Shown here piece after piece: positions 14,768 through 62,006 of a stretch of DNA of 64,000 nt. Made by a program: the position numbers and the translations under genes. The stretch comes from Protonemura montana (lineage: Eukaryota > Arthropoda > Insecta > Plecoptera > Nemouridae): assembly GCA_947568835.1 (NCBI GenBank), contig OX387611.1, positions 8,498,001 to 8,562,000 on the forward strand, written 5' to 3'. Within the stretch, counting starts at the first letter, position 1; each line of letters opens with the position of its first letter. The notes under the pieces are model-generated. The model was not told the origin of the DNA and ran no database searches. It was given only the letters and a program-made list of their open reading frames with translations.

Positions 14768-15340
14768 ACGTGAGATAGCGTAAAAAAATCCTATCTCTGT
14801 CTTAAGTAAATTTTGTTTAAAAACGGAAAGTTGTGTACTATTTTATGTAGCCCTTTCGAAGACCTAAAGCTCGTTATTATGCAGAAGCTTTCTTATATCA
14901 AAAGCTGTCTTTAGCTCAGTGAAATGAGGATTGGACCGCCAACTCTTCGTTTTTCACGTTTTTCCAACACTTGAACACTTTTCTTAAAATAGTTCTTTTT
15001 TAGTAATGCTAACCTTGACTGATCGAGCTGCATGTATTGGTATTTTGAGTCGCAGTAATTTCACTATAAAGTTTTTTTTTAAATTGGCATTAGGCATTCG
15101 TTGACCGTTCGTTTGCTCAGCTTAAAGTTAACATTTGACGCTAGTCACTAAACTTATAAACTCAATGGTACTATAGACGAACTTCTCTTTGTTATAATGT
15201 TGATTGAAGATTGTTAGAACAGCAAATTTAATTTAGAATGCTTGTTACTTATATATGGTTGTAAATTAATACTCAAAAGCTGCCAAATCACTGCAATGCA
15301 AAAAATTTCATACCAACTTTTTTCTTTCCTTGACAGAAAC

Positions 15341-21924: not shown

Positions 21925-22400
21925 AACTGGTGGTGTTTTTGACTGGTCTGCACCGGTGCACATTTTAAACTTGCTCAATGGCGTCATGCTCTCTACCGGG
22001 TTTGCCCCAGCTTCGAGAGAGAGCGCTCCCACCTGAACACGTGATCACTAGCTGTCAGTGCATTCATTTCTTTTCGTACCGTCGACATTTTCAGAGCAAG
22101 AAAAGTGCACCGGAAGTGACCCGAGAGCGAGCAACTCTACCAGTCGAACACGTGAAAGTTGCACTGGGGCAGAGTCACATGCCCAGTCGAACACGTGAAA
22201 GTTGCACTGGGACAGAGTCACATGCCCAGTCAAACACGTGAAAGTTGCACTGGGACAGAGTCACATGCCCAGTCGTACACGTTCAAGTTGCACTGGGTCA
22301 GAGTCACATGCCCAGTCGAACACATGAAAGTTGCACTGGGGCAGAGTCACATGCCCAGTCGTACACGTTAAAGTTGCACTGGAGGAGTTAGTCGAACACG
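21925..22400 (+). mobile_element. Minisatellite-bearing element (43-bp unit), plus copy
   Basis: Begins near CTGGTCTGCACCGGTGCA (the last 12 bases are palindromic). It continues with CAATGGCGTCATGCTCTCTAC, GAGAGCGCTCCCACCTGAAC and GTGACCCGAGAGCGAGCAAC, then five to six 43-bp units (GTCGAACACGTGAAAGTTGC). Lies about 530 nt beyond the Tdc stop. Confidence 0.8.
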
Positions 22401-37882: not shown

Positions 37883-38537
37883 TTTCACGGTTTTCCAATA
37901 CAATTCCCCGAGATATACTAGTGCGTTTAGCCGCACACGAGGTAGGAGCAGACGAGCAACGACACGATGAACGACCAGACGGTTGCGAGAATTATGGGAG
38001 GAGACAATCCATGGCGCTAAAATCCAAACTACTTACTCGGCTTTTAGGAGTTTTTGTTGAATCATTTTAAAATGTAGTTTACGAAGTTTATCATAGTGCG
38101 TCAAGGGGAACTGGAGGTGAGTACGAAAGTCCAAGTTTAAGGCAATAGATGAGCAATATTTCTCCACCTTGCCCTAAGCTTAATACGTGACACTTTTTGA
38201 TAATATATTTCGATCAGCGAACGCATCCAAACGTCTTTGATCCAAACCCTGATTATATCCTTTATTTTCATATGGGTTCATTAATTTTTTTCGGAATATC
38301 CTCAGTTACTTGAAAAAGGATCAGCGAGCAAATACCCATTTTGCAATTTGTGATTCACCTTAATTTTACTCTGATATTGCTTTATGCAATAATCTAACAT
38401 CTGGCTCAAAAAAGTATCGATAATTTTATTTGTTCAAATAGAAAAACATTTAAAATTCAAAATGTCTTCAGGGCATCGATGCGTATATAAATCGAAATTT
38501 AATTAATGGATGTTGGGGGATAGATTTTACTATTGTA
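37883..38537. other. WDR12 upstream region
   Basis: GC-richer for about 120 nt next to the WDR12 start (likely promoter without TATA), then AT-rich up to the 70-bp satellite. No gene seen. Confidence 0.45.
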
Positions 38538-39640
38538 TTCGTTCCTCGCAAAGAAGCGGACACTCACCGTCGCCTCTATACTGGACATTCCGTGACATGG
38601 CGCTTGTTTCGCTCCACGAAAAGGAGCGGACACTCGCCGTCGCCTCTGTGCTGGACATTCCGTGACAAGGTGCTTGTTTCACTCCACGCAAAGGAGCGGA
38701 CACTCGCCGTCGCCTCTGTGCAGGACATTCCGTGACAGGGTGCTTGTTTCGCTCCACGCAAAGGAGCGTACACTTGCCGTCGCCTCTGTGCTGGACATTC
38801 CGTGACAAGGTGCTTGTTTCACTCCACGCAAAGGAGCGGACACTCGCCGTCGCCTCTGTGCAGGACATTCCGTGACAGGGTGCTTGTTTCGCTCCACGCA
38901 AAGGAGCGGACACTCGCCGTCGCCTCTGTGCTGGACATTCCGTGACAGGATGCTTGTTTCGCTCCACGCAAAGGAGCGGACACTCGCCGTCGCCTCTGTG
39001 CTGGACATTCCGTGACAGGATGCTTGTTTCGCTCCACGCAAAGGAGCGGACACTCACCGTCGCCTCTATACTGGACATTCCGTGACAGGATGCTTGTTTC
39101 ACTCCACGCAAAGGAGCGGACACTCGCCGTTGCCTCTGTGCTGGACATTCCGTGACAGGGTGCTTGTTTCGCTCCACGCAAAGGAGCGGACACTCGCCGT
39201 CGCCTCTGTGCTGGACATTCCGTGACAGGGTGCTTGTTTCGCTCCACGCAAAGAAGCGGACACTCGCCGTCGCTTCTGTGCTGGACATTCCGTGACAGGG
39301 TGCTTGTTTCGCTCCACGCAGAGCAGCGGACACTCGCCGTTGCCTCTGTGCTGGACATTCCGTGACAGGGTGCTTGTTTCGCTCCACGCAAAGGAGCGGA
39401 CACTCGCCGTCGCCTCTGTGCTGGACATTCCGTGACAGGGTGCTTGTTTCGCTCCACGCAAAGAAGCGGACACTCGCCGTCGCCTCTGTGCTGGACATTC
39501 CGTGACAAGGTGCTTGTTTCACTCCATGCAAAGGAGCGGACACTCGCCGTCGCCTCTGTGCAGGACATTCCGTGACAGGGTGCTTGTTTTACTCCACGCA
39601 AAGAAGCGGACACTTGCCGTCGCCTCTGTGCTGGACATGG
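38538..39640. repeat. 70-bp minisatellite, second array, about 16 copies
   Basis: Same 70-bp unit as at 6 kb, 32 kb away and about 650 nt upstream of the WDR12 start. Variants include CTGTGCAGGACATTCC and TATACTGGACATTCC, some recurring in pairs, which suggests higher-order duplication. The long minus-strand open frames (up to 337 codons) are a by-product of the stop-free unit. Confidence 0.95.
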
Positions 39641-39949: not shown

Positions 39950-40372
39950 TTATTATTTGTGGTGTTTAACGACGCACCGTTTTGACATCTGGCCATGCGG
40001 CACTGGTCCAATGGCGTCTGTGAATGAGTAGATGATGATGAGGATGATGATGAACCTAACCTAGCCTAGAAGGGAGGAGGGGAAACCCGGTGCCGGCACG
40101 TAGTCTACTCCTGTCGAAGAGCACCAAGGGGACCACCAGCTAAACGTCCCTTCCAAAGGACGGTACAACTCGAACAACACGATACCTCCACAAATCCATG
40201 CTGTCGAGAGGTTGACAAGCAAGGCGAGTGAAGTTGCTGCACTAACTTTCATCCTTCCAACCTCTCTCCAGAACAGAACTGGTCATGTGTATGATGGTCA
40301 CCCATCCAATACCCGACTCAGCGTAGTGTTGCTTAATTTCTGTGATCTCGCGTGGACCGGTGTTTCCAACAG
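39950..40372 (-). mobile_element. 5S-derived SINE, full-length reverse copy
   Basis: On the minus strand the copy runs from GGAAACACCGGTCCACGCG through the 5S-like head (AGCAACACTACGCTGAG), the body (CTCGACAGCATGGATTTGTG) and the tail (GTGCGTCGTTAAACACCAC) into an (ATT)n run. It lies about 120 nt upstream of the lectin initiator. Confidence 0.8.
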
Positions 40373-40642: not shown

Positions 40643-43600
40643 ATGTCTCCAGGACATCAATGGGTGGGTAACATTTATGGTTATTACCAATTTATGTATC
40701 TGCCTCTGCGCTTGTAAAATTTATACCTGAAAGGTATCTGTTTCTTTCTTTCCCGGTCAAAAATGTGGACACATTTCGATGAAATTTGCAAAACATTCTT
40801 ACGAGATTTTGGTTCTTAAAATCATGTCTACTTTATCTATCCTTCAAACTAGTTTTGACAAAAACTATTTAAACTGGGTTTCAAATGTTAAGTGAAGAAC
40901 AACTAAATATCCCTAGAGATTCAAACGAGATCTACGATTTTTTTGTGTTTTTTTTTTTGTATTTTTTATTTTAACTAATCAGTTTGAAGTTCTGATTTAA
41001 ATCAAGATTAACGATTATTTTCATGCAAATTTGCACAAAAATACCAGACAAATCAAAAGGTTAAAATTCGTAGACATAGTTTCTTTTGCAAAATTTAAAG
41101 ATAGATAGAAAAAAAAGAAAAAAAGAATGAAAGAAAGGACAAAACAAAAACAGAAATACCCCCATCTACAACGCAACTCAAAATACGTTCGCAAATATCT
41201 AGTTCAGTGATAACGAAATGGATAAATAATTGTTAAAAACGTTTGCTATGTTTTGCAGAGGTCGCTGTTGGCGGTTTTGGCACTGTTTCTAGCGTCTGCA
41301 AATCCTAACCGCCTTGAGGACGGATTGACAATAAAAACCCCACCAATTACGAACACAGCCGACCAATGGACAATCGCCACCCAGAAGTGGAATCGGCTGG
41401 CTGATCAGAGGTTTGTACCAATTTGATTTGAAAATAATACCAAACCTTCACCCTCTGTTGATATGCAGTTGTTATTTTAAATTATATAGCAGAAACCTTA
41501 GCTTATTTCTTTGTCTTACTTTAATTTACAAAGGAAGTCTTAACCCACGTACGAATTGTAAATATATCTAAGATTTCAGCCGAAGCCATTAGACAAGTGC
41601 CGCAGGGCCAGATTTCGAAACAGTGCGTCGTTAAAGCTAAATAATCAATGAATTAAAGAGACATGAGAAATGAACGACTGATACTAACTGAGTTATCCGT
41701 GGGTCCAACCTGTTGTCGGAGCACGACTTTGACTTCACTAATAAAAACAATCACTTGGCCTTTGCGTCTAGGAGCAGGTTTTTCAAGGCTGTCCATACCA
41801 CTTTAACAATAAGTATCGCTACTTTCCGATGGACGCATTTACAAGTTTGTTGACCGCAAATACATTGACCCCTGTGACCCGGGATTGTGTAACCCTCCTG
41901 GGATTATTATGAGACAAAATAAAGAAGAATTAATAAGCCCTGTCACGAGATCTCAGCATCGTCATGGCTACCAAACGTTGAAACTACCATTGAACCTCCT
42001 ATGCTAGGTCATGATATACCCGTGGTAACATAAGATAGCAGAATTGAGGATCTCTGTCAGGCGATCTCAGCATCTCCGTGGCGACTAAACGTTGAATCTA
42101 TCATTAAACCTCCTAAGCTAGGCCGCGATATACCCGTGATAACATAAGATAGCAGAATTGAGAGGCTCTGTCAGGCGATCTCAGCATCTCCGTGGTTACC
42201 AAACGTTAAATCTTAGCATTGGACCTCCTATGCTAGGCCATGATATACCAGTAGTAACATAAGATAGCAGAATTGAGAAGCTCTGTCAGGCGATCTCAGC
42301 ATCTCCATGGCCACCAAACGTTGAATCTACCAGAACCTCCTATGCTAGGCCATGATATACCCGTGGTAACATAAGATAGCAGAATTGAGAAGCTCTGTCA
42401 GGCGATCTCAGCATCTCCATGGCTACCAAACGTTGAATCTACCATTGGACCTTCTTTGCTAGGCCATGATATACCCGTGGTAACATAAGACAGCAGAATT
42501 GAGAAGCTCTGTCAGGCGATCTCAGCATCTCCATGGCCACCAAACGTTGAATCTACCATTGAACCTCCTATGCTAGGCCATGATATACCCGTGGTAACAT
42601 AAGATAACAGATTTGAGATGCTCTGTCAGGCGATCTCAGCATCTCCATGACTACAAAAAGTTTAATTTTCCCCTGAAGCTTATATGCTTGAAAGTTATTT
42701 TGTTTTCAAAGTTAGCAACAAAAATTACATTCTTTGCTCACAACGCGTATCAATAATAAATTAACTAACTCATTCAATAATTTATGGTGTTACCAACAAA
42801 CTGAAACGTTCGGTGGTCACCCATTCAATATCTAACTAAGCACAGTGTTGCGTAACCTCGGCGATCAAATGAGAACCGGTGTTTCCAACACACCAAACCG
42901 TTCGGTGGTCCCTCATCCAATACCTGACCACGCGCAGTGGTCAACTTAACTTCGGTGATTGCATTTTCTAGTGTTTGACTGGCATTCGCTTTGAGATTTT
43001 CATTTATTACTTATTGCTATTCTGTAATTTTTAACTGTTTCCATCAAATATGCAAAACTTTAAACGCGTGAGATCACCGAAGAGAAGCGACACTTTGCTG
43101 AGTCAGGTTTTAAATGGGCGACCACCGAAAGGTTTGGCGTGTTTGAAACACCGGTTCTCGTGAGATCACCGAAGTTAAGCAACACTGCTCTGGGTCAGGT
43201 ATTGGATGGGTGACCACCAAACGGTTTGGCGTGTTGGAAACACCGGTTCTTGTGGTATTTTGATGCTAAGAGCTTGACATAAAATGACGTCTATTGTTGT
43301 TTTAGGCCTGTGCCGCAAAATGAGCTTAAATTTAAAGTAAAAAAGGCTACGTGGACTGACGCGAAGGCGGCTTGTGCAGCCGACGGTGCTGCGCTCTACA
43401 CGGTCAACAACTCTGCGCAGCTGAACTCGGCAATGCTTAACTTTTCCTTGCCGCACTCGCCCTGGGTGGACATGAATAAGACCGGAGGTATGTGGGAAAA
43501 ATCAAGAAAGCTTAATGGAGACCTTTATTTATAATGTTTTATATGGATTGGAGAAGTGGTTTAGAGCCATCGATAGATGTTGGAGTGTTTAGCGATTTTT

Positions 43601-46600
43601 TTAAGTCGTGATTGACTTGCGGCCATAAAAAGGACCTAAAAAGATGATGTGGCGCCGACATCTTTAGGAATGTGTCGATGCGGCAGGCGTTCGCTGCTTT
43701 TATAAGGTCCTAGACGGGTAACAAAGCAACGCCGACGAAACGTCGACTTTTTAGGACATTTTTAGGTTAGCTAGTCAATCTCAACTACAAAACTCAAGAT
43801 CAAAACCGTTGAACATATTACAATCCTTCATATGTATTACTTCATATGTATTCAAACTGTATACTCCAGTGGGTGGTGCAAACGATTGTGAGCTCTTGCA
43901 GTTGGACATTGATAGCCTTTCGGAGTGGTGTACCACCTGGCGACTGAGTTAGAATGTGGCAAAGTGCCATGTGTTAACTTTCACAAACAAAAAGCAACCT
44001 ATTCATCATAATTATAAGCTGAAAGATCTAAGTCTTACTCGTGTTACACATGTAAGAGACTTGGGCATTATTATGGACAGTTCTCTATCCTACAACAGAC
44101 ACATAAGCAGTATTGTGCCCAAAGCGCTGCGAATGCTGGGGCTTGTGAAGAGGAACTGCTTGCGGAAATTCAGCAGGCGAACTGTCCGGACCCTATATGT
44201 AGCCCTCGTTAGGCCGCAAGTTGATTACGCCACTGTGATATGGAATCCCAATGGGACGAGCATCACCAACGTAGATAGTATCGAGAAGGTTCAGCAACGC
44301 TATATTAAATATATGTGTTTCATGTGTGCTACCCCTTACCACAGAAATGAATATGCTGACGCGTGTAAAAATCTCCAAATCACTACACTTGAAAGAAGGC
44401 GAAACATTTCCGACCTGGCTTTCCTACACGGAATTGTGCATAATAACTTTGATTGCAGCCTGTTAAAGGAAGTGTCTTTTCGGGTGCCAGGAAAAAAAAC
44501 TCGGAATAAAGACGTTTTTAGGGCCCCGAAGGCAAGGATAAATATTTTTAAGTGGTCTTGTATTCCGAGAATACTAACTTTGTTTAATCTATACAGCGAC
44601 AACATCCAGAATCTGGATATTAATTTTATGTCTTTATTAGATTTTAAGGAAGCGATAAGACTTTAAGAATGTGCACTGCCATATTTGTATCTGTTTTGTT
44701 ACTATGCTTATGTTTTTTGTTGTATCGTGTTTTTATTATATGGCTCAACTGGGTTACTAACCTGTACGTCATAAAGTTTCAATAAATAAATAAAACTAGA
44801 GGTTCCGCCCGTCGGCCTTATGAGCCAGCAGGAAAACGCAATGGCTCATGCAGACTCGCAACGGTGACCGATTGATTGATTTGTGGTGTTACACGACACT
44901 CTGTTTTGACATCTGGCCATACGGCACTGGTCTAATGGCGTCAGTGACTGAAAGGATGATGATGATGCCCAGGGGGGAGGAGGGGAAACCTAGTGCTTTC
45001 ACGTAGCCTACACCAGAAGGACGGTACAACGCGAACAACAGGATTCCTCCACAAATCCATGCGTTCGAGAGGTTGATAAGCAAGGCGAGTAAAGTTGCTG
45101 TACTAAATTCCATCCCTCCAGCCTCTGTTACTCTTGTGTTTCCAACACGCCAAACCGTTCGGCCGTTTTGATCCACGTGAACCACGTTAAATCTTCGCGT
45201 TCGGCAAAATCACGAAGTGAAGTGAATTTAAGAGAATTGAATAGTTCACAACGAACACGACCAAGTGCATACATAACGGTACCCAAATCAACAAAACTTT
45301 TTTTTCTCAGCTAATAACGGCTCCACGGAGTGCAGCTTTCTGAACGCTTCAGCATCCGGTAGAATCAACATCTACTTCGACGACTGCCTCGCCCTGCACG
45401 GTTTCATCTGCCAGAAACCAACGTCCAAGTCGAAGACATTCATTAAGCAGACGTCCAAGGCCGATACCGTCATAGCACCAAGAGCATTGACCACGCTCTA
45501 TGACTTCCTTGACGCTTTCGCGACTCAATGTCAATTTATGGGCAACATTTTTGAGCCTCGCATTGCGTCAGCCCTCCTGCAATCTACGTCACTGACCCCT
45601 GCAGAAATTTTTGAAATCACTGCAATGGGAACAGGAAGCCATGCTTTCAGCTTTGTCGCAATTCCCGGCATCAACTTGATGATTTCTTCGCCGTTTCCTT
45701 TGCTCCAGCTTCAGATCCAGTCGATCCAAGTTGCCGCCACAGAAGGAGTGAACCTTTTCACGTCAATGCAGATCATAACCTCCGCGTACGCATCACAACT
45801 GAACCTCAACGCCGTCCAAACGCAACTCATCGTCGACGTAGCCGCACAGGCTGTCAGTTTCTACAACGTCATCGCAGACGTGGTCGCCAACGACTTGGTC
45901 CAGCCTGTCGTCACTGCTGAGCAGGTGTCGCAGCTGCAGGCCATTATAACGCAGACACAGATACTGCTCGACGGTGCTGCCAACGCGTTCGCAGCGACCC
46001 CTTACGCGGAGTTAGCGCAAATGATTCAAACCCACTTAACGATTAACCAGGATTACTTTAGTTTAACGCAGCCACTGCTGGCCAATGCACTTACGCAGAC
46101 GAACTTGCTGACACCCGAACAATTGGCACTGCTGCAAAGTGTCGCCGGTCAGACTCAAAGCGTGTTCGCAGTTTCAATTCCGGGCATTATAGCTTTGCTG
46201 TCATCGACACAGTCGTTATCACCTCTGCAAATACAACAAGTACAGACCGCGTTGGCTGAGAATTCTGGTCTTTTAGACATCTCCAATCAGGTGACAACTG
46301 CATTATCACCTATGTTGGGTATTAGTACTGAATTTCAACAGGCTGTCAGCGATTTCATTTTAAGTGACCAAGGCTTTCTTACAGCCTTACAGATTTTGTT
46401 CAGCGATCCGTTAGTTGAGCCTACGATTACCCCGGAGCAGATTCAACAGCTTCAAGATTCACTCTCTGAAGGTCAAGGCTTGCTGACTGCGGCCGGTAAC
46501 CTAATCGATGGAGCAACGACCCCAGCCCCTCCACTACCGACCATTGCTGAATTACTTCAAGACTACCATGCGTTAACTCAGGTCTCCTTTGGTTTGATGC

Positions 46601-49027
46601 AACCAATGTTGCTTGCGGCTGCCAGTCAATCAAACGTGTTGACACCTGAACAGGTGCAACTAATACAAGACGTCGCCACACAGAGTGCGCTGTCTACCTC
46701 AAACGCTATACCTGATCTTATCTCTTTATTAACAACAACGCCAACGCTCAGCCCTCTGCAAATCGGACAAGCACAGGCCACACTTACTGAAGGCGTCGCC
46801 CTCATTGCAATGTCTAATACGATCACCAACATTTTAGCTCCGCTATTAAACATAGACCCTTTCGTACAACAAGCAGTCGGTGAATTAAATACACAATGCC
46901 TTGCCTTTTTGGGGGCTTTGCAAGCGGTATTTATCAATCCGTTTTCACAACCGACACTCACAGCGGCCCAAGCTTTGGAACTGCAGAACGTACTGGCCCA
47001 GCTGCAGATTCCCATCGATTCCCTGAACAACTACTTCTCCACGACAACCACTCCCGCACCTCCTCCGTCGCCACTATCACAAGCCCTAGAAGCACTTTTA
47101 GCGCAAGTGGTAGGCGCATATAGTTTCTTCGGCCCTGTAATAGGAGGTGTAAACCCTGCGGCGTTGACTCCAACAGAGGCGGCTCAACTCGAGGCGATTC
47201 GCACGCAAACTCAGAACCTTATATCAGTCAAATTTCCCAGCGTCATCGCAATGTTGGCCACAAATCCAACGCTAACCCCGGAACAGGTGCAGCAAGTCAA
47301 AGACGTTCTAGCCCAGAGAATTACAACACTCACGGCGGCTTCCTGTGTTGTTAGTTCTCTGTCAGAAGATCTGGGTTGGAATGCCGCTCAGCTGCTAGCC
47401 TCTGAAGTATTGGGGACTGAAGTCATAGCTTTGTACGGTGCGGTTTTGACTGCTGTTAGCGATACAAGCGTACAGCCTGTAATCAGTGCGGACCTATTAG
47501 CGCAACTCGAGGAGGCGACAGGACACGCCCAGGATGTCTTCGGCGATATCCTCGGTTCTTTAGCTACCACAATAACGGCAGCGACTACGACCACTACACA
47601 ATGTACCACCCATACTTGGCATCCGCGACCCACAAGACCTCCGCAAGGTCACCATCACCATCACCATCATCTGTCGCCGCTTGAAAGACGTCTGGTATTG
47701 TCACGAATCTATGGGATCACCGTTGAGCTTGAGGCGTTGTTCCATCTTCTGAACTCGCCGTCTGTCGGTGAGTGAAAATTGTTTTCTTTGCGTTTTTTCA
47801 AAGGTTAGCCACCTAAACGATGTCGTTTTCGTAGAACGCAATCCTTACGTTTACCTTCGGTGCTTCTCAGGTCACCTTTCCATCTTGTATTTCTACAGTG
47901 TGTATCTTCATTTTTTTTTAAACAGCATTGGATGATCATACACAAATAAAATTACATCTAGGATTAAAGCACATGGTAGGGCCAATTTTATCACTACACT
48001 ATAGGATTAATTTGAGTTTGCCACTTTCCGGGGTGCTTGCACCAACCTAGAAAATATGACACCATGATGCTACTGTTAGCTATCCGATTTAAAAGCAACA
48101 AAATAATGGTTTTTCTTTGGTTAAAACATTTCATATATTCAGTAAAACAAAATATTTAATGAAAAACAATAAATGTTAATCGACCAAAGTTGAAATGAAT
48201 ATATATTGGATTACTTTTAACTTTTATCAGGTTTTGGCAGGAAACCAAGCTTGCAAACCGCTTTTTGGCAGCCATTGCTAGAATCCGCAAGTGTACGGTA
48301 GATATTTAGCAGAAGTCATTAGGACTTTTAGTTTTGTATTTAAGTTCTTATTTTTCAATAGAATTAATTTCAGGTAAATAAACTGATAAATTCACATAGA
48401 ATTCCAGTGCGTGATGCATTGTTTGGTCATAATTTTCTGGTTAATTTTCAAACTCCCCGGTGAAGACTGGCTTTATTTTGCATTCTAAAGTTGGCAATGT
48501 GTAATCAGAGTCCACCAGCTTGTGGCATGGTAAGACTAACACAACTGTATTTCATCATTTTAGTTTACGGACAGAATCATTTTTCGTTTTCTTTTTTTTT
48601 TAGTTCTTAGCTTTTCAGAAATTGATTAGTTTTTTGCAGAAATTGAAAAGTTTTGTAAAAACCGACAAAGAAATATTGAAAGCAGCGCTTGCCCGAATTG
48701 GTTTCTATAAAAAAAAATACAATTCTAACTCAGCTTTTGTTGCCATTTGCAGTCCAACGCACTACCGCTGCGCATCCCGTGGCCGTCATCAACAAGCTGC
48801 TTACGGTGCGCACGCGTGGAACTGAGATTGAGGCACGCCTGCGCACCATGTCAGCGCACGAGCAGATGCAGATAGCCAGCAAGCTAGATTTCGCCCAAGG
48901 GCAGCTGCGCAAGCTGGTCTCGGATCCGTCCGAATTGACTCAATACTTGACAAAGACTTCGGGACGCCAACTGCCTCTCACTACGTTTCTAAACAAAATG
49001 GTGGATAATCTTGAACCATTCTTGTAA
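40643..49027 (+). CDS. Secreted C-type-lectin-like protein with 16 helical sub-repeats and a His tract
   Basis: Exons: 40643-40663, 41259-41410, 43306-43487, 45311-47767, 48753-49027; all junctions in phase, about 1028 aa. The seven-codon first exon (MSPGHQW) joins RSLLAVLALFLASA to complete a signal peptide of about 22 residues. Residues about 60-156 form a short C-type-lectin-like domain: four Cys (AAC, TEC, DDC, FIC), PWVDM in place of WIGL, ending GFICQKP. The EPN/QPD and WND calcium motifs are absent, so classical sugar binding is doubtful. Residues about 200-870 form four ~175-aa units, each with four ~35-aa sub-repeats resembling LTPEQVQQLQ..L..G. TTPAPP-rich linkers follow units 2 and 3, and unit 4 ends in a Thr run. 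A run of seven His (about 899-905) and a charged C-terminal region follow. One 2.46-kb exon encodes all repeats. I do not recognise the family. Secretion is well supported; function is unknown. Confidence 0.85.
40800..40915. repeat. Diverged copy of the short-element family
   Basis: TTTGGTTCTTAAAATCATGTC, ATCCTTCAAACTAGTTTTGAC and AACTGGGTTTCAAATGTTAAG keep the order with about one change in five. Lies in the first lectin intron. Confidence 0.5.
41577..41650 (+). repeat. 5S-SINE tail fragment in the lectin intron
   Basis: GAAGCCATTAGACAAGTGCC and AACAGTGCGTCGTTAAAGC match the SINE 3' end only. Confidence 0.6.
41932..42655. repeat. 114-bp minisatellite in lectin intron, about 6.3 copies
   Basis: The unit includes CTCTGTCAGGCGATCTCAGC, ATCTCCATGGCCACCAAACG and GGCCATGATATACCCGTGGT, then AACATAAGATAGCAGAATTG. 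Found once in the window. Units are 90% or more alike by eye, so expansion looks recent. Confidence 0.92.
42785..43262. repeat. Cluster of 5S-head repeats in both orientations
   Basis: 42790-42965 carries two minus-oriented 5S-like heads (TTGCGTAACCTCGGCGATC; CAACTTAACTTCGGTGATT). 43065-43255 carries two plus-oriented ones (GAAGTTAAGCAACACTGCTC; GGATGGGTGACCACCAAACG). Each is separated by the linker GTTTGGCGTGTTGGAAACAC. No SINE body is present, so these are head-only multimers just upstream of the lectin exon at 43306. Confidence 0.7.
43600..43795. repeat. Relative of the 35-kb palindrome
   Basis: TTGACTTGCGGCCATAAAAAG, GGCGCCGACATCTTTAGGAA, CGCCGACGAAACGTCGACTT and AGCTAGTCAATCTCAACTAC follow the palindrome order with an altered centre. 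Lies in a lectin intron just left of the LINE fragment. Confidence 0.65.
43863..44793 (+). mobile_element. LINE 3' fragment, Jockey/CR1-like reverse transcriptase C-terminus
   Basis: The sequence encodes the end of a non-LTR reverse transcriptase: ELLQLDIDSLSEWCTTW, then KCHVLTFTNKK, VRDLGIIMDSSLSYNRHI, TLYVALVRPQVDYATVIWNP, IEKVQQRYIKYM. These are typical palm/thumb and post-RT motifs. The main open frame is 43956-44666. A stop (TAG) lies just before it after TWRLS, so the copy is 5'-truncated and decayed. It ends in CAATAAATAAATAAA, a LINE-type tail. It sits in the lectin intron between 43487 and 45311, in gene orientation. Confidence 0.85.
44874..45175 (-). mobile_element. 5S-derived SINE, reverse copy with an internal deletion
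   Basis: Tail GTCGTGTAACACCACAAATC, box GTTTCCCCTCCTCCCCC and head-side AACACAAGAGTAACAG are present on the minus strand. The segment holding the capital A/C boxes of the 5S head is mostly gone. It lies in the lectin intron before the large repeat exon. Confidence 0.65.
47995..48500. repeat. Dispersed repeat, copy 2, in the last lectin intron
   Basis: Parallel match to 13262-13720 with about 10-15% difference, including AACTCCCCGGTGAAGACTGG against AACTCCCAGGTGAAGACTAG. Same orientation. Confidence 0.7.
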
Positions 49028-49085: not shown

Positions 49086-49091
49086 AATAAA
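49086..49091 (+). terminator. Poly(A) signal of the lectin-like gene
   Basis: AATAAA lies 59 nt after the stop codon of the last lectin exon, a normal distance for a compact 3'UTR. Confidence 0.6.
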
Positions 49092-49164: not shown

Positions 49165-49380
49165 ACCCGAGAAAGGTTTGGCGTGTTGGAAACACCGGTT
49201 CTCATGATATCACCGAAGTTAAGAAACATTGTGTTGGGTCAGGTATTGGATGGGTGAGCACCGAATGGTTTGGCGTGTTGAAAACACCGGTTCTTGTGAG
49301 AGAACTGAATTTGAGCAACATTACGCTGGGTCCAAACGGTTTAGCATGTTTTGAAACACATTTTTTTTTGGATTTTGATG
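49165..49380 (+). repeat. 5S-head multimer beside the lectin remnant
   Basis: Up to three diverged plus-strand heads joined by GTTTGGCGTGTTGGAAACAC-type linkers (CATGATATCACCGAAGTTAAG; GGATGGGTGAGCACCGAATG). It matches the arrangement at 43120-43262 and appears to be duplicated along with it. Confidence 0.65.
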
Positions 49381-49480
49381 CCAAAAGCTTGACATAACAT
49401 TTCCTTTTTTTTCCTTTAGAGAGAATGCACCGCAAAATGAGCTGAAGTTTTACAATCACAAGCTAACGTGGAATATATTT
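49381..49480 (+). pseudogene. Remnant of a second lectin exon (CTLD start)
   Basis: After a pyrimidine-rich acceptor (CTTTAG), sequence encoding APQNELKFYNHKLTWN-like residues matches the start of the lectin exon at 43306 (VPQNELKFKVKKATWT). The intron just upstream (AGCTTGACATAA) and the paired 5S-like repeats before it are duplicated as well (43120-43330 against 49165-49430). Homology fades after about 50 nt of exon. No signal-peptide exon or repeat body accompanies it, so this is a fragment of a tandem duplication. Confidence 0.65.
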
Positions 49481-53000: not shown

Positions 53001-56000
53001 AATATCTCTTTAATTTCCAGTTGAAACAGTCAGGTAGAGTTAAACGTAGGGTAACATTTTTAAACTTTTTGGTTTGCCATACCAAGATTGCCATATTTTT
53101 TATACATTATAATTTAAAAAAAAAAAATTTGTCCCCTCGACCTATGGCTATCCTTGGCTACGTCCAGCCCCCCGAAGAAGTTACCGTGTAGGTGTTCTTT
53201 TGGGACTGCGTGCGGTAGAGCCAGTAGCCGGTTGCCATGCCGACGAAGTAGGGCGCAGCGCGCGTGTGCGACTTATTGTACAGAGACTGGAAGTAGTCAC
53301 CCGAGCGCGTTTCCTTGACGAGTCTGCAACCATGTCATGACGTAATCATCAATTCAGACATCACATTACGGGAAAATAATATGAGGGACAAGTCCTGACT
53401 GGCCTTGCAGGGACCTTAATTTGTCTCCGATATTACCCACGGCCTGCTTTTATCCAAAAGCACTAATGGCCGGCCACAGCTAAGCCTTGTCCTTTTGACT
53501 CACTTTGTTGGCTTCTCCTGTCCAACAGCACCAAGGACCGGCCACCGCTTAGTCTTGTCCCTTTGACACTCTGTGTTGGCTGCTCCTGTCCAACAGCACC
53601 AAGGACCGGCCACCGCTTGGTCTTGTCCCTTTGACACTCTGTGTTGGCTGCTCCTGTCCAACAGCACCAAGGACCGGCCACCGCTTAGTCTTGTCCCTTT
53701 GACACTCTGTGTTGGCTGCTCCTGTACAACAGCACCAACGCAGGCTACCACTTAGCCATGTTCCTTTTACACACTGCATCATCCCTGTTTTTGTTCCACT
53801 GGTGTATTGGCTGTCGGTGAATACTAACTCATCGTTGCAGAAGTGCAGGGGTGGCTTGTTGCCGATGAAGGTGATAAGGAATGGCACCAACGCCGAACCA
53901 AGCGTCAACGCTCCCAGGAGGCAAGCGCCGGCCTTGGGGCGTTTGTGAATCACCGGGACCACGGCCATAGCTACGACGAAGTAGTGCAGATCGCAGGCCA
54001 GGTACCAACTGTGAATCATACACTGCAAACACAGAGGTAACGTCAGCAAATTGCTACATTACTTTGTAGAAGATGGACATTATTTTGATTCGATTAAATA
54101 ATTTATGTGGTTAAGTGGCCTACAGTTTGATAACTGGAAAGTTGGCACTGATGTAATGGCTACAGTAAATTAGTGAGTGATAATAGGGACGATAATCAAC
54201 CTAACCTAGATTCTTAAAGAGGATCGTAAGCCAGGTTCTGGAGCGTTGTAGCCTCCCTTTTGTCTTAGAGCAACAATGGAAAATACAGCTTTGGAAAAGA
54301 TACTTGTTTAAACGTTACTAAAAAATAGCTCACCTCGTCATCTCCACAGAAAAAAAGCCTACATTTTTAACAGGTCTTGACTTGAAAATATAGATTTTTA
54401 GATGAGATTTTTTGTTACTGCAATTATTGGTTATATGGTATCGATATTTGACATAAACCACAATTACTAGGAAGCTGGAAATTTGGACCACGAATAAATC
54501 CCAACATTCCACATAATAAGTGGTAAATAGTAATTTTTATTTTTATTCCAGGTGTTATAAGCGTTGTTGTAGCGTGTTTTTAACGGTTTCTATGAAATAA
54601 AAGAATGCATAAGGTGACGGAAACAATTCCAGTGAACAGCTCTTGACTCTGACAATGTTGCTTTTTAACGCAAGAAATAAAGAAAACTTCGACAAACTGC
54701 GTTTCTCTTAAGGTGATTTGCTTAAATTTGGTGCCGTCCGCCGATTCGGGGCCGTACCGGGCGAACCATTTGACAAAAAAGGCAAAAAAAAAGTTCAACA
54801 ATAGAAATGATGTGGTCATCATTGTACCAAATTTAGTCGATTTCTAAGAGGTGATAGTCAATTTCCAAAAAAAAAAAAAATGGTTGAATCGACATGGAAT
54901 GACTCTTGGAGTGATTTGTTTAAAATTATTTTTGGGTATTTCCTTTTCTACAAATATGTAACAATATGACAACAAAACAATAAGCAATGTAACATATTAT
55001 TATATCATATTATATTATAAACAATATTATAATATATTACTTAATAATAATGTCAATATAATATTTCAAGAAAATCCAGAAATCAATAATGTGTAACTGA
55101 ACCGAAATCCGAGCTCGGTACCTTCAAATTGCCAGTCTGATGCTCTACGTAGGTATCTTGCGGGATATGGGACCTCACAAGAGGGTTGAGGTCAAAACAG
55201 CATCACTTGGATAAGTAAGCGATATAATCCCCGTATACAAACTATGGTGTGTCACCTTTCCTCATATCTTTTTTTCCGTATTTCTTATCCCGTTGAAACG
55301 AGGGGCGTATATTAATATAGTTGATACAGCTATCTACACTTCTTACTGTTATTTTGAACTCCACGTATTTTGTTTTACATCTTAGAGGTATCTGTATCTG
55401 TATGTAGGGGTCACTGGGTTTTGGAAACTTGGGGTTTGAGGGTTTACTTGGGTTTTCTGGGTTAACTAAGTTTAAAGACAAGATTTAAAAAAAGGGGCAA
55501 GAAGGGTAAAAATAGTTTGGAAAAGTTATGAGAAGGGATGAAGAAAGATTGCCGGGGAGCATTTAAAGCTTGCAATATTAGAGAAGGGGAATTGAAAGAC
55601 CAAGAGAAAGATGTATTGAAATGGTGGAAGCTTATACGGAGGAAATAATAAGATAAAGAAGTGAAAAAACAGAAAAACAAAGTTGGTTTGAAAAAAAGTA
55701 TGGAAGAAGTTGATGTGTGAAAAGGAGTTTGAAGATGAAGAAAACGATTTACAAAAATTCAAGTATCATGCCTAAAATGTAGCATTTCGTTTTCGTAATT
55801 GAAGATCAAAATTAAACGAAATATGAAAATAAAATAAATGAATCTTGCACAATTACCATCTCGTGGTCGTTGACGTAGTTGTTGACGTAGAACAGGTTTG
55901 TCCACCAGTTCTTAGCGCATGTGTCGCGCTCCTGACCCATAATTTGGTGCCACACCGGCCCGTCGCCAAAATGGTACAGCAAGGTGGCGTAGAAGAAGAC

Positions 56001-59000
56001 CACCACCATGTACATGGGGGTCAATCTGCGGTAAGGGCAAATGACAACAATGGAGCCAGAGGCTAATCACTGATTTTAAATAACCTGGTTGGTGGTTGTC
56101 ATAGATTGACTGTGAAGATTCTTCCGCCATCTTTGTAGTCTCTGATTTTGAGTTCACTCACCGATCTTGATAGGTTTATACCGATTTTTTGACCGATCAC
56201 CCGTTTATAGGCACCGCCAAGCTACACCCTGTCTGACTTTTAGGCAAACCGCACAAAGGGCTAAAAGTCACGTACACACCATGTGCTCTCGTACAACTAG
56301 TTTACACACCGTGCAACGTAAGCAATCTTACTCGATCGCTACTGCTTAGCTTTGTCTCTTTGACTCACTATGTTGGCCACTCCAGTCCAACAGCACCAAG
56401 GACCGGCCACCGCTTAGCCTTGTCTCTTTGACACACTGCGTTGGCTGCTTCTGTCCAACAGTACCAAGGACCTACCACCGCTTAGCCTAGTAACTTTAAC
56501 ACACTGTATTTGCACCAATAGACAGCCACTTTTTATCCATGTTTCTTTGAAAATCATTGGGCGGGGTGATGATTATGACTAGTTAATCATCATTATTTGT
56601 GTCAACAAAAAATCCAAAACCAAAAACTTTTTTCTCGGATCTTTTTAACCTATTTTTTTTTACTAAAACACGGGTACCTAAGATAGCGCAGACCGATAGC
56701 CTTGAAAAAGTTGACCTTCTTCTTGTCGAGCGTCTGGCAGAGGAGGTATGAGACAAGAAGCCCGCCGATAACGAAGAAAACGTCCACCATTAAGTCGCCT
56801 TTGAAGAGGACGACCGCGAAAAACCGATGGTATTGCTGCAGAAACATGGCAGAGACTGACTTCACAAGGACTTGCAGGTAAGACCACGGGACTTGCGTAG
56901 CTTTTAGACAAAATTAACATTGAAGATTATTTACTAGGGCTCTGCAACGAAATTTGAGTTATCTCAAATGAAATATCTTAAAGCGTTTATTTATTGTTCT
57001 TATTTTGGAAGGACGAACCCCTCATGTTTCACTATTAGATTTACTGGCCACCTCCAAAATTGGCCCTATCCCTTACTCCCGGACAGTGGTACCTTTTCGA
57101 AGAACTCGTAGTTCTGGACAGGTATTCCAGACGACATTGCTATTCGGTGCTCGATGATGATATAACACATGGCCACAAAGCGCATGCCATGTAGAAAGTC
57201 CAGGCTGTGCAGTGACTGCTTAGGGAGAACTAAATCGTGGTAGTTCTTGCGCACCGAGAAGCATAAGAGATAGGCGACTGCTTCGCTCTCTGTATGGGGA
57301 AAAGAAAGATTTCGACTGCAATAGACCCAACTGTTGACATTTCTTTTTATGTCTTTGTTAGCACGCTACCGGCGAAACGGTTGCACTCATCACAACAAAA
57401 TGTTATTACTATCTTGAATTATTTGCATGTTCAACTGGTCTGCACCCGAGCAGGTGCAGACTTGCTCAATGACGTCATGCTCTTTACCGGGTTTGCACCA
57501 GCTCCAAGTGAGAGCGCTCCCTCCCGTTAACGTGATCACTAGCTGTCAGTGCATTCATTTGTTTTCCAATGGCACAGTAAAAATTCTCAGAACAAGAAAA
57601 GTGCATTGGGAGTGACCCGAGAGCGAGCAACTTTCCCAGTCGAACACGTGAAAGTTGCACTGGAGCAGAGTCACATGCCCAGTCGAACACGTGAAAGTTG
57701 CACTGGGGCAGAGTCACATGCCCAGTCGAACACGGAGATCGCTCCTAGTGCACACCCGGGCTCACCGGGACAGTTTGCTTTATGTTTCGTGTAGTATAAG
57801 AGAATGTTTGAGTATGATTATTATAACAATCGCTTAAAATTTCATAAAAAGTTAGCTGTTTTGGATGTTTTTGCCCTTCACGCCCTTACTTGAAATTTTT
57901 CTTAAAAAACTGCTGTTTACCTCCAGGAACCGAAAAAAATTTCCTTCGCTACGCTCCTGGTCTATAAAGGCTTATTTCACGCCTACAAGGCACCTTTTCG
58001 CGAGAATTGATCCCGAATCGACTTATGCTGGTGCCTTTTTCCACCCAGTAATCTTCAGGCAGCTTGCCAAGCTTACGTTTGTCTGATGTCTCGTCCTGGA
58101 GGAAGTCGAAAGTGGTGCTGACGACGACAACGAAAACGATCAGCGTCAAAAATGCACTGTAAATGAGGCGGAGACAAACAAAGAGTAAACATTTGCTAAA
58201 CCCGCTGTACAAATCGAGACTCACGACCCTCATCCAACAATGTTTGTTGCACTATGTAACAAAAATGGTCTGGTTTTTTTTTAATTTGCATTTTTTCACG
58301 TTGCGCTAGCCACGCAGAGCGCATGCCTGGCGTTTACATAACCCAAAGCGAACTTAAGTTCTTTGTTAAAGATATACTAAAGAAGGGCATACCTTGCCTA
58401 GCAACCTAACGGACACAGATGACACTTTTGGAAGGTGGCACTTAAACAGTGTAGATTGTTATTAACTTGCAAGATGTACTACATCAATCTAACAAAGATC
58501 AGCTGCCACCAATGCAACGTTGGACTATAAAGTAGTCCAAGTCAGCACACTGAACTACAAATTAGGGTTTTGTTGTGAAACGGTAGCTGAATTATGGATG
58601 CACTATTTATTTTTAGTGCGTACGTAAAATTGTTAGAGATGTAAAATTACCGGTAATTTAAAAAATGGTAATATTACCGGTCATATTACCAGTAATTTAA
58701 CCAATAAGTGGTTAAATTAGTAAAATTGAAAAAAATTCATTCTAAGGTTACATTTTTTTTTTTGGAAGACAATTTGCAAGTTTTATGACCATTTTATTTT
58801 CTTACTAGATACTATTCAAAATTAATCATTCTTCACTTTATAATACCTTTGCGCCTTACTCTTAACTTGACCCATGCTGGAGGTTGGATGGATTCTGTCA
58901 ACCTTGCATGGGAGTGTCGTGTTGCTATGGCTATTTTTGATTAGAATTGTGAATATTAGTGTTGTGACAGCGATGGCAAGGTATAAAATGCAGCTAACGT

Positions 59001-61449
59001 AGCCACAAACAGATGCAAAAAAGGACCAAAAAATAAATTAAAAAGGGTAATATTACGGTTAAATTGCTCGGTAATATTACCGCCTTACATCTTTAAAAAT
59101 GTAAGATTTTTATATGACTGCTCTGGTCTGTGGTAACTGTGAAACTTCTGTTATGTTAGGTCAGCTCGCGGTTCTGGACCGTCGCGTGTTTGTGCATGTC
59201 AGATGTAAAAGCCGTGAGCATGTGGGATAATCGATACAGGCCGTACATGGCAAGATGGTTGTGTGTGTAAAATCATTGTTAAATTATTGTCTCTCAGAGG
59301 GATTAAATTTCTCTGCGCCTTTTAAGCGAGAGATTGACTTTACCAGAACGCGATTGTGCCGGTCGATAGTTTCTCCTCTTGCCGTCCCGTCTGGCAGAGC
59401 GTTGCATCCACTTTGACGGTCGCTACCGACTGCGAGTTGTCTTGCTCTGTGGCCGCCAGGTGCAGGTTGATCGCTGTCTCTAGGTGAGCGTGGGAACACG
59501 AGGCAGGCACACACAGTGCCCAGTGGATCATGTCTCGTCGGTGCCGCCTGGGGTCCCCGTTGTGCTGATGAACCAGAGAGAGCCAGTTAGTGTTTACTAG
59601 GGGCTTTGCCACTAGGCGCTCGCCAGGAGCTGAAGACAAGTGTTTTACACGCAACCTACTTTGAACTAATTGAGTTTAAACATACGTTTCACCGCATAAA
59701 TAGTGCTATTGTTAAAGTATAAACGTGCTAAGATAGTTGCCAAGTGTCTACAAACCTTAATTAATCAAAATAGCACTCAGGGTGTAAAAACTTGTCCCAT
59801 TCTCAAAAAAGACTACCATTCTAGCAAGGTATTCAGTTTGAAAGAGGTTACAGAAAAACTGTGGAATAGAATCGTGAGAAAAAAAAGGTTGTCCAAAAAT
59901 CCAAAATTGTCCAACTTTTTGGTTCAGCAAGAAAAACACGAAGGTGTAGAAATGACAAAAAAAAGAAAACTAAATGTCATTAAATGTCCAAAGTAGGACC
60001 CAAAATTGCCCAAGAGTCCGAATCACAATTAATGTCTGTAAAACGTCAATTCCAAAACGTTTAGTCAAAGACAGAAACCAAAAAAACCTAACGAGACCAA
60101 AAACTGTATAGGCTATAAGGAGTATTTGTGAAAATTTTGGCGCAACAGGCGTTTAAAATAAGAAGACAGATTGTTAGGTTGAAGTTTGCAGAAATGGTTT
60201 TATTTTAAAAATATTACTGTACCAAATTAAAAGAGTTTTTTGCTAGTGGTTTTTTGTTTTTGGTTAAAGGAAAATGCATGAAGCAAAAACCAAAAGGTGG
60301 CCAAAAGAGCTAACAAACGAGGTAATTGTTAGGTGTTCTTGGTTTTGCCCTATATTGAAGAAGTTTCTCAGGAAACATTCACAATAATTTTCCTCATTCA
60401 ACTATTATCATCAATCAGATCAATCAAAACCATTCTCCTGAAGATGACGAGCCGTGCCTCGTCAAAACGTTAAGACGTAAGATCCTTTCTAGGGCCGCAA
60501 ACCTCTTCAATACAGAGAAAAACAGAAAAACACCTAACGTCACACAATGGCTCTGAAAACAACCACTCGACCAAGCGAGCTAAAAATATAAAGAGTGAAC
60601 TCACGATCATCTTGTCCCAGACCGATTCCGCGGTCCAACCACCTGCGCGTGGAGACACCATCACCGTCACCAGACAATACTGCGCGCGCATCGGTTGAAC
60701 TTGTGCCACGCATGCGTCGAAGTTGCCCAGCTGGTATAGATTTCCGGCGAGGATACCGACCGCACTCTTGGCGCTGGCGTCCCACACTGTGGCACGGGGG
60801 CGATTAGCAAGATCGCAGACCTAGTTAATTGTGTAGGGTATTGGAAGAATGGAGGTTAAATTTTTAAAAATTTTCCTTGAGCCTAGCGTTAAGAAAGCCC
60901 AGCAATCTGTGCTCTGAACAGGAGATACTTTTAATTAAGGGCAGAGTTGAGAGTGTGAGCGAGGTCGAAAGATCGTGTTCACAATTTTTTGGTGCGATGA
61001 AAGCCTTGCAGAATCTCATTACCATGTAAACACATAAAGAGCATATGGGGAGCCGAAAGCAGCCAGACGTTAGGAAATACGATTTAAGAGCTAGGAGCAG
61101 CCAAAGGTAAAATAAAAATGAACATGTGGATTATCAGAGGTAGCCAGGGAGAGAAAAATAACATAGCAGTGCCCATGGAGTATTTAAGGATGGGAAAAAT
61201 AGCGTGACATTTGCCCTGGAAGTGAGAGCCGAACGTCCCACGTGACTCACTTTGCATCGCCCAAGCGGTGGAGTTTTGCAGGTTGGCCTGCAGCTGTAGG
61301 CTGTCTGCCTTACACTGAGGGTCGTCCGACAGAACAGCAACGATTGGCAGCGGCGGAAAGATCTCTTCGCCGGGGAACACGTTGACAGTGGCAGCTGCCA
61401 CGCTGGCCAATGACGCCAACGCTGCCAACGCCGCTACAACTCTGTGCAT
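50089..61449 (-). CDS. NRF-6-like (nose resistant to fluoxetine) membrane acyltransferase, 13 exons
   Basis: Exons on the minus strand: 61449-61251, 60786-60643 (or to 60605), 59629-59344, 58156-58077, 57289-57077, 56900-56678, 56025-55857, 54022-53829, 53323-53185, 52523-52334, 51944-51802, 50774-50665, 50329-50089; about 776 aa. Signal peptide at 1-20. The secreted NRF domain shows WAMQMWDASAKSAVGILAGN, LGNFDACV, QYCLV and WALCVPASCS. An acyltransferase-3 domain follows: HGMRFVAMCYIIIEHR with the conserved His (about 284), VDVFFVIGGLL, RLTPMYMVVVFFYA, CAKNWWTNLFYVNNY, APYFVGMATGY, and a final VEAP helix. Worm NRF-6 relatives are membrane proteins linked to lipid or drug transport; the acyl substrate is unknown. 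Odd points: the exon 2/exon 3 phase works only with the weaker donor after 60643, and the DxFFxxSG motif has Gly for Ser. Exon 12 can either stop at TAA 50663-50661 (697 aa) or splice to exon 13. Confidence 0.88.
53465..53770. repeat. 68-bp minisatellite in acyltransferase intron, about 4.5 copies
   Basis: Same unit as at 15.6 kb with TTAGTCTTGTCCCTTTGACA as the main variant. Lies between acyltransferase exons 53323-53185 and 54022-53829. Confidence 0.92.
54580..54905. repeat. Dispersed repeat, inverted relative of 30.1-30.3 kb
   Basis: GGGCCGTACCGGGCGAACCA, AACAATAGAAATGATGTGGTC and GTCGATTTCTAAGAGGTGA pair with 30.1-30.3 kb in reverse complement. The left part (GACGGAAACAATTCCAGTGA; CAAACTGCGTTTCTCTTAAG) resembles 10255-10460 in parallel. 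It lies in an acyltransferase intron. Confidence 0.65.
56344..56520. repeat. 68-bp minisatellite in another acyltransferase intron, about 2.6 copies
   Basis: CAGTCCAACAGCACCAAGG and ACCGGCCACCGCTTAGCCTT repeat with decay toward the right end. Lies between exons 56025-55857 and 56900-56678. Confidence 0.88.
57428..57755 (+). mobile_element. Minisatellite-bearing element (43-bp unit), short copy
   Basis: Starts with an inverted repeat CTGCACC..GGTGCAG, then CAATGACGTCATGCTCTTTAC and GTGACCCGAGAGCGAGCAAC, and only two 43-bp units. It ends near GATCGCTCCTAGTGCACACC. It lies in the acyltransferase intron between 57289 and 58077. Confidence 0.78.
58636..59096. mobile_element. Candidate non-autonomous DNA transposon (hAT-like ends)
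   Basis: The left end AGATGTAAAATTACCGGTAA and the right end, reading inward on the opposite strand as AGATGTAAGGCGGTAATATT, form imperfect inverted ends of about 20 nt rich in TTACCGGTAA. Internal sequence is AT-rich with no transposase. hAT elements often start C/A-GRGATG, which is why I suggest that class; no 8-bp target duplication was verified. Confidence 0.4.
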
Positions 61450-62006
61450 TGTGTGCTGTCCGTGAGTGCAGCGATGAAGTCAGTGCTGCGAAACCTGCAG
61501 AGAAGTCTGGCAGTAGTTTGCTTCTGCGCTTTTGGAATGACTTTGGAAGAGTAAATCAAAGCGAGCTTTAGGTGATTTAAGTGCGTCGTTATGCATGGCC
61601 TTTATTAACCCATACAGCGTTTGGTCAATGGGCAATGAACGAGTCACAGACCCAACCTTCAACGGCCTGGAATTAAATGTCATTCAAAGACCCAGCTCTA
61701 ATGTTAACTGTTCAAAATATCTTTTAATATGGGTCAATCAATACGGTTGGCATCAATGATGACTATTTAAGGGTGATTCAGTATTGTTTGTGATATGCAA
61801 GGAAACTAAGAGAAATTTAAGAAATCAAATTTTTTTCTCTAAAATAAAAGGAAACTCCGTCTATTTAGTAAAGCATCATATTTCCGTGTGTCTTTGTCTT
61901 GATTAGTTAATATTTTTTAAGAGTGCCTAACATTAGCTCTGCACCTTTGAATTCAAAAGCACAGTGCATTTTTTATCGTGATAAAATTAGACCAATCTTA
62001 TTACCT
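61450..62006. other. Acyltransferase upstream region
   Basis: Expected to hold the promoter of the minus-strand acyltransferase gene. No TATA box at a fitting distance was recognised. The remainder is AT-rich without repeats I could identify. Confidence 0.4.

What the first reader, a model, noticed from the sequence alone, without database searches (positions are those of the whole stretch)
45311..47767. A secreted lectin-like protein built from 16 sub-repeats in a 4 x 4 pattern
Seen: motifs like LTPEQVQQLQ recur at residues about 213, 249, 284, 319; 385, 421, 456, 491; 562, 598, 633, 668; 737, 773, 808, 843. Spacing is ~35 within a unit and ~175 between units, with TTPAPP linkers after units 2 and 3. 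A CTLD lacking calcium motifs precedes the array and seven His follow it. Inference: the sub-repeats are amphipathic helices, giving a long helical rod presented by a lectin-like head. I know no described family with this order.
Basis: partly seen in the sequence, partly recalled or inferred. Interest (0 to 1): 0.82.

Follow-up and report, generated by a model that had tools for sequence, protein, structure and literature searches.

The report
Lectin-headed string of five-helix beads
An animal gene appears to encode a secreted protein with a small stripped-down lectin-like head followed by four old, diverged copies of a predicted five-helix bundle; it matched no catalogued repeat family, looks most like a beads-on-a-string structural protein, and what it does is untested.

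Summary
A five-exon + strand model (40643-49027, 1028 aa) has GT-AG introns and compatible phases, with motifs at exactly the listed residues. Four units of about 173 aa align end to end at 22-40% identity; no scored shuffle (496-499 per unit) reached a left-out unit's score. Silent sites between units are saturated (81 of 108 fourfold sites differ) while residues are kept, so the array is old and constrained.

The interpretation needs correcting. Each ~35-residue element is one predicted helix, and a fifth, motif-less helix opens each unit: 4 x 5, not 4 x 4. AlphaFold2 gives a compact five-helix bundle (pLDDT 90.9, pTM 0.86): beads, not a rod. The head is a compact C-type-lectin-like domain without the long loop. 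No Pfam family reaches its cut-off in array or tail, and no solved fold matches significantly. A formally strong TALE-repeat match is judged a sum of weak matches.

Best reading: an extracellular structural or adhesive beads-on-a-string protein. Function untested, host unidentified, animal relatives not searchable here.

The parts
40643..40663 (+). Exon 1 (coding part): 7 residues that begin the signal peptide, phase 0 donor GTGGGT
   Evidence: In-frame join found; weakest exon of the model, no RNA support
41259..41410 (+). Exon 2: rest of the signal peptide (hydrophobic run ending in an A-x-A site) and the start of the mature protein
   Evidence: Acceptor TTTTGCAG, donor GTTTGT; signal peptide judged by eye, no predictor run
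43306..43487 (+). Exon 3: N-terminal half of the C-type-lectin-like domain (first Cys, WVDM in the place of WIGL)
   Evidence: Acceptor TTGTTTTAG, donor GTATGT; Pfam Lectin_C E 1.7e-4, 22.7 bits against cut-off 22.6
45311..45450 (+). Start of exon 4: C-terminal half of the lectin-like domain with the other three framework Cys (126, 144, 152); only 11 residues between WVDM and Cys126, so no long loop
   Evidence: Positions; PDB matches to lectin-like chains
45311..47767 (+).
   Evidence: 832-codon open frame, splice borders
45481..46002 (+). Unit 1, residues 176-349
   Evidence: Alignment A1
46003..46521 (+). Unit 2, residues 350-522; predicted five-helix bundle
   Evidence: Alignment A1; AlphaFold2 pLDDT 90.9, pTM 0.86
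46516..46533 (+). TTPAPP linker, residues 521-526
46534..47052 (+). Unit 3, residues 527-699
   Evidence: Alignment A1
47047..47064 (+). TTPAPP linker, residues 698-703
47062..47571 (+). Unit 4, residues 703-872 (most diverged)
   Evidence: Alignment A1; identities 22-25% to the others
47650..47670 (+). Seven His, residues 899-905, after a Thr-rich stretch
   Evidence: sequence read
48753..49027 (+). Exon 5: charged C-terminal tail and stop codon; about 124 residues together with the end of exon 4; not recognisably another unit
   Evidence: Acceptor TTTGCAG, frame end; five tail stretches score no better than shuffles (363-644 of 1000 reach them)
49086..49091 (+). AATAAA polyadenylation-like signal 59 bases after the stop codon

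Best explanation
The gene encodes a secreted modular animal protein: signal peptide, a compact C-type-lectin-like head without the calcium/sugar loop, four tandem five-helix bundles, a Thr/His-rich stretch and a charged tail. The bundle probably arose by repeating one ~35-residue helix, and was then duplicated as a block; the block duplications are old. Shown: the open frame, the repeats, the constraint, the head's sequence features. Predicted: the bundle fold. Inferred: it works as an extracellular structural or adhesive component (matrix, coat, glue or silk-like), in which nearly base-free, Gln/Thr/Ala/Leu-rich bundles act as compact beads on short hinges, the head docks the chain to a partner, and the His run can bind metal.
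For: Repeats far above shuffles, each left-out unit recognised. Same-position elements score much higher than different-position ones of other units (39.2, n 24, against 5.9, n 72; null -22.1, SD 12.5), which fits block duplication of a finished bundle. Saturated silent sites, 81 of 108, with conserved residues. Five helices of 24-31 residues, mean pLDDT 90.9. Array: 6 K+R and 50 D+E in 697 residues. No N-glycosylation sequon in the array (4.4 expected, 0.9% of shuffles as low) but five in the head. The 11 columns invariant in 4 of 4 units are Pro (4), Leu (4), Gln (2) and Thr (1), with no catalytic-looking set. Aciniform silk repeats are also five-helix beads with disordered tails (PMC4481645 abstract).
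Against: The functional step is by analogy. No silk entry is among the 50 fold matches shown. Units are diverged (22-40% identity), whereas wrapping-silk repeats are described as homogenised (title of PMC3933166 in a search listing). There are four units, not dozens. No expression, species or homologue data. No fold match is significant.
Confidence: 0.42

Rival explanations
1. Hydrophobic-ligand carrier: each five-helix bundle encloses a pocket for a fatty acid or similar ligand, and the tandem array is a multi-site carrier targeted by the lectin-like head, as tandem helical lipid binders work.
For: Yeast extracellular fatty-acid-binding proteins that resemble Mp1p in structure are predicted as five helices of about 30 residues with an inner cavity (PMC9526294 passages). 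Afmp4p with palmitate (5j5k) is in the Foldseek list, rank 26. Bla g 1 shows that an all-helical cockroach allergen can be a lipid capsule (PMC6893020, abstract start in a listing).
Against: The 5j5k match is poor: E 0.82, TM 0.36 (query) and 0.40 (target), rmsd 9.8. No Pfam family above its cut-off. No conserved polar pocket signature.
Confidence: 0.25
2. Immune or recognition protein: the lectin-like head binds a microbial or host ligand without calcium, and the helical array is only a spacer or multimerisation stalk.
For: The head carries a lectin-like domain, and calcium-independent binding by such domains is documented (PMC7618208 passages).
Against: The long loop is gone: 11 residues lie between WVDM and Cys126. 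The array is far larger than a stalk, is predicted to fold as separate bundles and is itself conserved.
Confidence: 0.15
3. TALE-like alpha-solenoid: the 34-36-residue LTPEQ repeats are a distant animal version of two-helix TALE repeats and form a superhelix.
For: The unit profile matches TALE-type chains in the PDB, best E 9e-15. Of 30 rows listed, 28 are taken as such: 25 by name (TALE, Hax3, AvrBs3, dTale; that these are TALEs is recalled) and 3 labelled TOD4/TOD6, by inference. The reversed profile matches none of them (1 row, unrelated).
Against: In those 28 rows only 0-2 stretches per chain pass E 10 on their own, although such chains carry many repeats (recalled); 2ypf_A has none at whole-chain E 2e-12. 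The 16-element profile lists 2 rows at E up to 10, neither a TALE. The model has one long helix per element in a compact bundle, and no TALE is among the 50 fold matches shown. A shared helix-cap box in a similar period is enough to explain it (inference).
Confidence: 0.03
4. Gene-model artefact: the lectin-like exons and the large exon belong to different genes, or the large open frame is not expressed.
For: No RNA data. Exon 1 is short and weakly supported. Retroelement-like sequence (by eye) lies in intron 3 (43953-44663).
Against: The second half of the lectin-like domain, with its three remaining framework Cys, lies inside the large exon and joins exon 3 in phase. The repeats show saturated silent change with conserved residues.
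Confidence: 0.07

Closest known systems
Aciniform spidroin (AcSp1) W repeat units of spider wrapping silk
   Same: Tandem ~200-residue units, each a globular five-helix bundle, joined as beads on a string (PMC4481645 abstract)
   Different: Here units are ~173 aa, strongly diverged, only four, with short TTPAPP hinges or none, and a lectin-like head. No silk entry among the 50 fold matches shown. No sequence search against animal genomes was possible
C-type-lectin-like domain proteins
   Same: Head has Lectin_C just at Pfam's cut-off, mostly lectin-like PDB matches and the four-Cys framework
   Different: Long loop absent, no EPN/QPD or WND; no described member with this helical array is known to me
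Mp1p-type fungal extracellular fatty-acid-binding domains
   Same: Secreted; helix bundle of five ~30-residue helices in the yeast proteins of similar structure (PMC9526294 passages)
   Different: Fungal; poor fold match (5j5k TM 0.36); no such Pfam family among the matches of the 4 units
Vinculin/metavinculin tail
   Same: Helix bundle (five helices, recalled); two of the better fold overlaps (TM about 0.5; 5l0c_D, 5l0d_D)
   Different: Cytoskeletal (recalled); E 0.47 or worse, 9-13% identity, the other vinculin rows shown have query TM 0.31-0.45
Bla g 1-type insect allergen repeats
   Same: All-helical
   Different: 12 helices around one large cavity (PMC6893020, abstract start seen); no such Pfam match here

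Membership tests
C-type-lectin-like domain (CTLD) | Profile match to Lectin_C | tested here: met
   E 1.7e-4, 22.7 bits against cut-off 22.6, residues 71-117 only. 17 of 18 listed PDB rows are lectin-like proteins (names recalled); 4 rows have E below 0.001, of which 3 are lectin-like and the second best is a PCNA entry
C-type-lectin-like domain (CTLD) | Four framework cysteines in order | tested here: met
   Cys 81, 126, 144, 152
Calcium-dependent sugar-binding C-type lectin | Long loop with EPN/QPD and WND motifs | tested here: not met
   11 residues between WVDM (111-114) and Cys126; motifs absent from the read sequence. A scan of intron 3 for phase-compatible exons of 36-220 bases gave 69 stop-free candidates, none with the loop-like pattern asked for
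Spidroin (AcSp1-like) | Tandem five-helix globular units | tested here: inconclusive
   Predicted for unit 2 with the other three as alignment; no silk entry among the 50 fold matches shown
Spidroin (AcSp1-like) | Spidroin N- and C-terminal domains | tested here: not met
   Head matches only Lectin_C and tail no Pfam family at E up to 0.1; that Pfam holds spidroin terminal domains is recalled
Mp1p-type fatty-acid-binding domain | Same fold as solved members | tested here: inconclusive
   5j5k at E 0.82, TM 0.36
Mp1p-type fatty-acid-binding domain | Bound fatty acid or internal pocket | not testable with these tools
   No model coordinates given, no ligand data
TALE repeat | Two helices per ~34-residue repeat in an open superhelix (recalled) | tested here: not met
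   One helix of 24-31 residues per element, five to a unit (predicted)
TALE repeat | Individual repeats match | tested here: not met
   16-element profile: no TALE chain at E up to 10; but the unit profile does match TALE chains as wholes, best E 9e-15

The most novel reading that the evidence does not exclude
A so far undescribed family of animal structural proteins that reached the five-helix beads-on-a-string design of wrapping silk independently, by duplicating one helix into a bundle and the bundle into an array, and that is tethered by a loop-less lectin-like head instead of silk terminal domains.
Probability: 0.2. Interest if true: 0.62.

Novelty: new variant of a known kind. Interest (0 to 1): 0.4.

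Why it matters
If right, it shows a traceable path from one helix to a five-helix domain to a four-domain chain, kept by selection after silent sites were saturated. It would add an architecture with an uncatalogued domain to secreted lectin-like proteins, and a candidate natural building block for helical protein materials. Lineage-specific orphan domains of this kind are common (general knowledge), so the surprise is moderate until relatives and tissue are known.

Tried and rejected
Relatives: scans of bacterial/archaeal genomes and of viral contigs with unit 2 found none (141 and 10 pattern matches, none confirmed). No eukaryote collection is held, so absence of relatives in animals was NOT tested. 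No whole genome is held for the window.

Known repeat families: rejected for lack of any Pfam match above cut-off. The TALE-like match was taken seriously and then rejected (its reversed control was clean and so speaks for a real if weak motif likeness). The 5 of 5 PDB rows for the whole exon all cover the seven His and are probably His tags (inference; alignments not viewed).

A fifth unit in the tail: rejected. A missing lectin-loop exon in intron 3: none found with the pattern used. Exchangeable-apolipoprotein-like helices: not favoured, because hydrophobic moments are weak. Alignment A2 overlapped identical units trivially and was not used. Viral-structure and two-unit fold searches gave nothing significant. 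A paper search meant to place the host by its repeats led nowhere. Literature: the search for the exact architecture found 0 papers holding 4 of 5 terms; of 81 papers in a broader one, 15 were listed and none of those titles describes it. No claim is made that it is absent from print beyond these searches of the held library.

Full report
What is there. The feature lies in a eukaryotic, animal-like window: coding pieces of a pyridoxal-dependent decarboxylase, a secretin-type receptor, a WD40 protein and an NRF protein, with 5S-rRNA-like repeats and many minisatellites. No genome is held and the species was not identified; 'animal' is inferred from these genes. A five-exon + strand gene can be built: 40643-40663, 41259-41410, 43306-43487, 45311-47767, 48753-49027. 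All four introns are GT-AG and all phases fit (exon 5 taken to the end of the stop codon as). The protein has 1028 residues.

Is it more than chance? Yes. A profile of the elements of three units recognises the fourth with 41.7-73.6 bits; none of 496-499 scored shuffles per unit comes near (maximum 21.1) and reversed units reach 14.9 at most. Units 2 and 3 share 39% identity over 170 residues (E 2e-33 in a six-sequence database). Self-comparison of residues 200-899 peaks at lag 177; lag 35 does not beat the maximum of 60 shuffles over all lags.

How the repeat is built. Alignment of the four units has 175 columns and shows a fifth, motif-less ~35-residue element before the first motif of each unit. 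When the profile is trained on the other positions, elements at positions 1, 2 and 4 are recognised in 10 of 12 cases (at most 11 of 1000 shuffles score as high; the misses are 681 and 207 of 1000). Position 3 is weak (16, 70, 214, 520 of 1000) and the motif-less element is recognised in 2 of 4 units (0 and 0 of 1000; others 77 and 126). Outside the first ten motif residues, different-position elements are still more alike in register than out of register (mean -4.5, n 96, against -16.3, SD 10.5); these pairs are not independent and the register was chosen on the motif. So helix-to-bundle duplication is likely but not proven for every helix; bundle-to-array duplication is clear.

Age and constraint. 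At residues identical between units, 81 of 108 fourfold-degenerate third bases (Ala, Gly, Pro, Thr, Val) differ, the 0.75 expected at random for this composition (sum over six unit pairs, which share units). The DNA is thus saturated while residues are kept, which speaks for a protein under selection and against a recent satellite-like expansion.

Fold. AlphaFold2 on unit 2 with the other three units as alignment: five long helices (2-30, 38-68, 74-100, 109-132, 144-171, plus a four-residue helix at 102-105), mean pLDDT 90.9, pTM 0.86. A two-unit run (units 1-2, with units 3-4 as the only other row) gave ten helices in two sets of five, pLDDT 76.8, pTM 0.51, so the relative placement of units is uncertain. 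Each element is one helix; LTPEQ reads as a helix N-cap box (inference). This makes beads, not a rod. Foldseek found no PDB match at E 0.001 or better among 445 with E up to 10; the best were designed bundles (E 0.14), and two metavinculin-tail chains overlap at TM about 0.5. The two-unit model and the viral library gave nothing better than E 0.059. Only the 50 best rows of each list were shown.

The head. Lectin_C matches residues 71-117 just at the curated cut-off. Of 18 PDB rows listed at E up to 10, 17 are lectin-like proteins; the other, a PCNA entry, is second best (E 2.9e-4) and overlaps the end of the head, probably by chance. The four framework Cys are present, but only 11 residues lie between WVDM and Cys126, so the calcium-carrying long loop is missing. 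That this loop carries Ca sites I-III and the sugar site is from PMC7618208 passages; a vertebrate CTLD with a short loop and no Ca residues is mentioned in PMC514892 (passage). All five N-glycosylation sequons of the protein are in the head; the 697-residue array has none (0.9% of shuffles as few).

Rest of the chain. The array has 6 K+R and 50 D+E; the tail is more charged, with 15 K+R and 11 D+E, has no Pfam family at E up to 0.1 and is not recognisably another unit.

Results against my reading. The TALE match (best E 9e-15) is formally significant and its reversed control is clean. I discount it because in the 28 TALE-type rows only 0-2 stretches per chain pass E 10 on their own, the element profile finds no TALE chain, and the predicted fold differs. 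Helix amphipathicity is weak. Unit divergence is unlike homogenised silks, and no silk entry appears among the fold matches shown. Two of twelve elements at positions 1, 2 and 4, most of position 3 and half of the motif-less elements are not recognised by the others. No relatives could be sought in animals.

How it most likely works. A secreted structural or adhesive chain: head docks, beads provide compact near-base-free modules on short hinges, Thr/His stretch and charged tail give metal or polyanion contacts (all inference). The closest working analogue is the five-helix bead of aciniform silk (PMC4481645, abstract and start of introduction). The main rival is a multi-site hydrophobic-ligand carrier, like fungal fatty-acid binders of helix-bundle fold (PMC9526294 passages). 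Membership in spidroins fails on the terminal domains; membership in the other families is listed in the membership test.

Noticed in passing
window 49171-49471: Decayed partial copy of the lectin-like exon 3 start (PQNELKF..KLTW, 71% over 14 residues) together with its flanking 5S-like repeat, just downstream of the gene; looks like a failed tandem duplication.
   Followed up: partly
window 42791-42906 (-), 43124-43257 (+) and further copies, e.g. 49171-49298, 7336-7481, 5160-5216, 40289-40371: Dispersed 5S-rRNA-like repeats; two reach Rfam's gathering score for 5S rRNA, others found by blastn. Look like a 5S-derived SINE.
   Followed up: partly
window 6005-6753 and 38533-39638 (70 bp); 11443-11840, 22140-22382 and 57635-57734 (43 bp); 15610-15945, 53453-53776 and 56344-56506 (68 bp); 14360-14769 (54 bp); 41926-42666 (114 bp): Minisatellites; units of 70, 43 and 68 bp recur at separate sites (consensus units compared by eye). 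One 68-bp array lies between two coding pieces of the decarboxylase, the 114-bp one in intron 2 of the described gene.
   Followed up: no
window 43953-44663 (+): Open frame that reads like a non-LTR retrotransposon reverse transcriptase fragment inside intron 3; no Pfam match at E up to 0.01, so the label is by eye.
   Followed up: partly
window 24797-26842 (-): 682-codon frame with a secretin-type 7-TM domain (7tm_2 E 8e-21) and a sub-threshold GPS match: adhesion-type receptor.
   Followed up: partly
window 60473-61479 (-): NRF domain (nose resistant to fluoxetine, E 1.9e-8) with an upstream frame that looks like a signal-peptide exon by eye (no Pfam match).
   Followed up: partly
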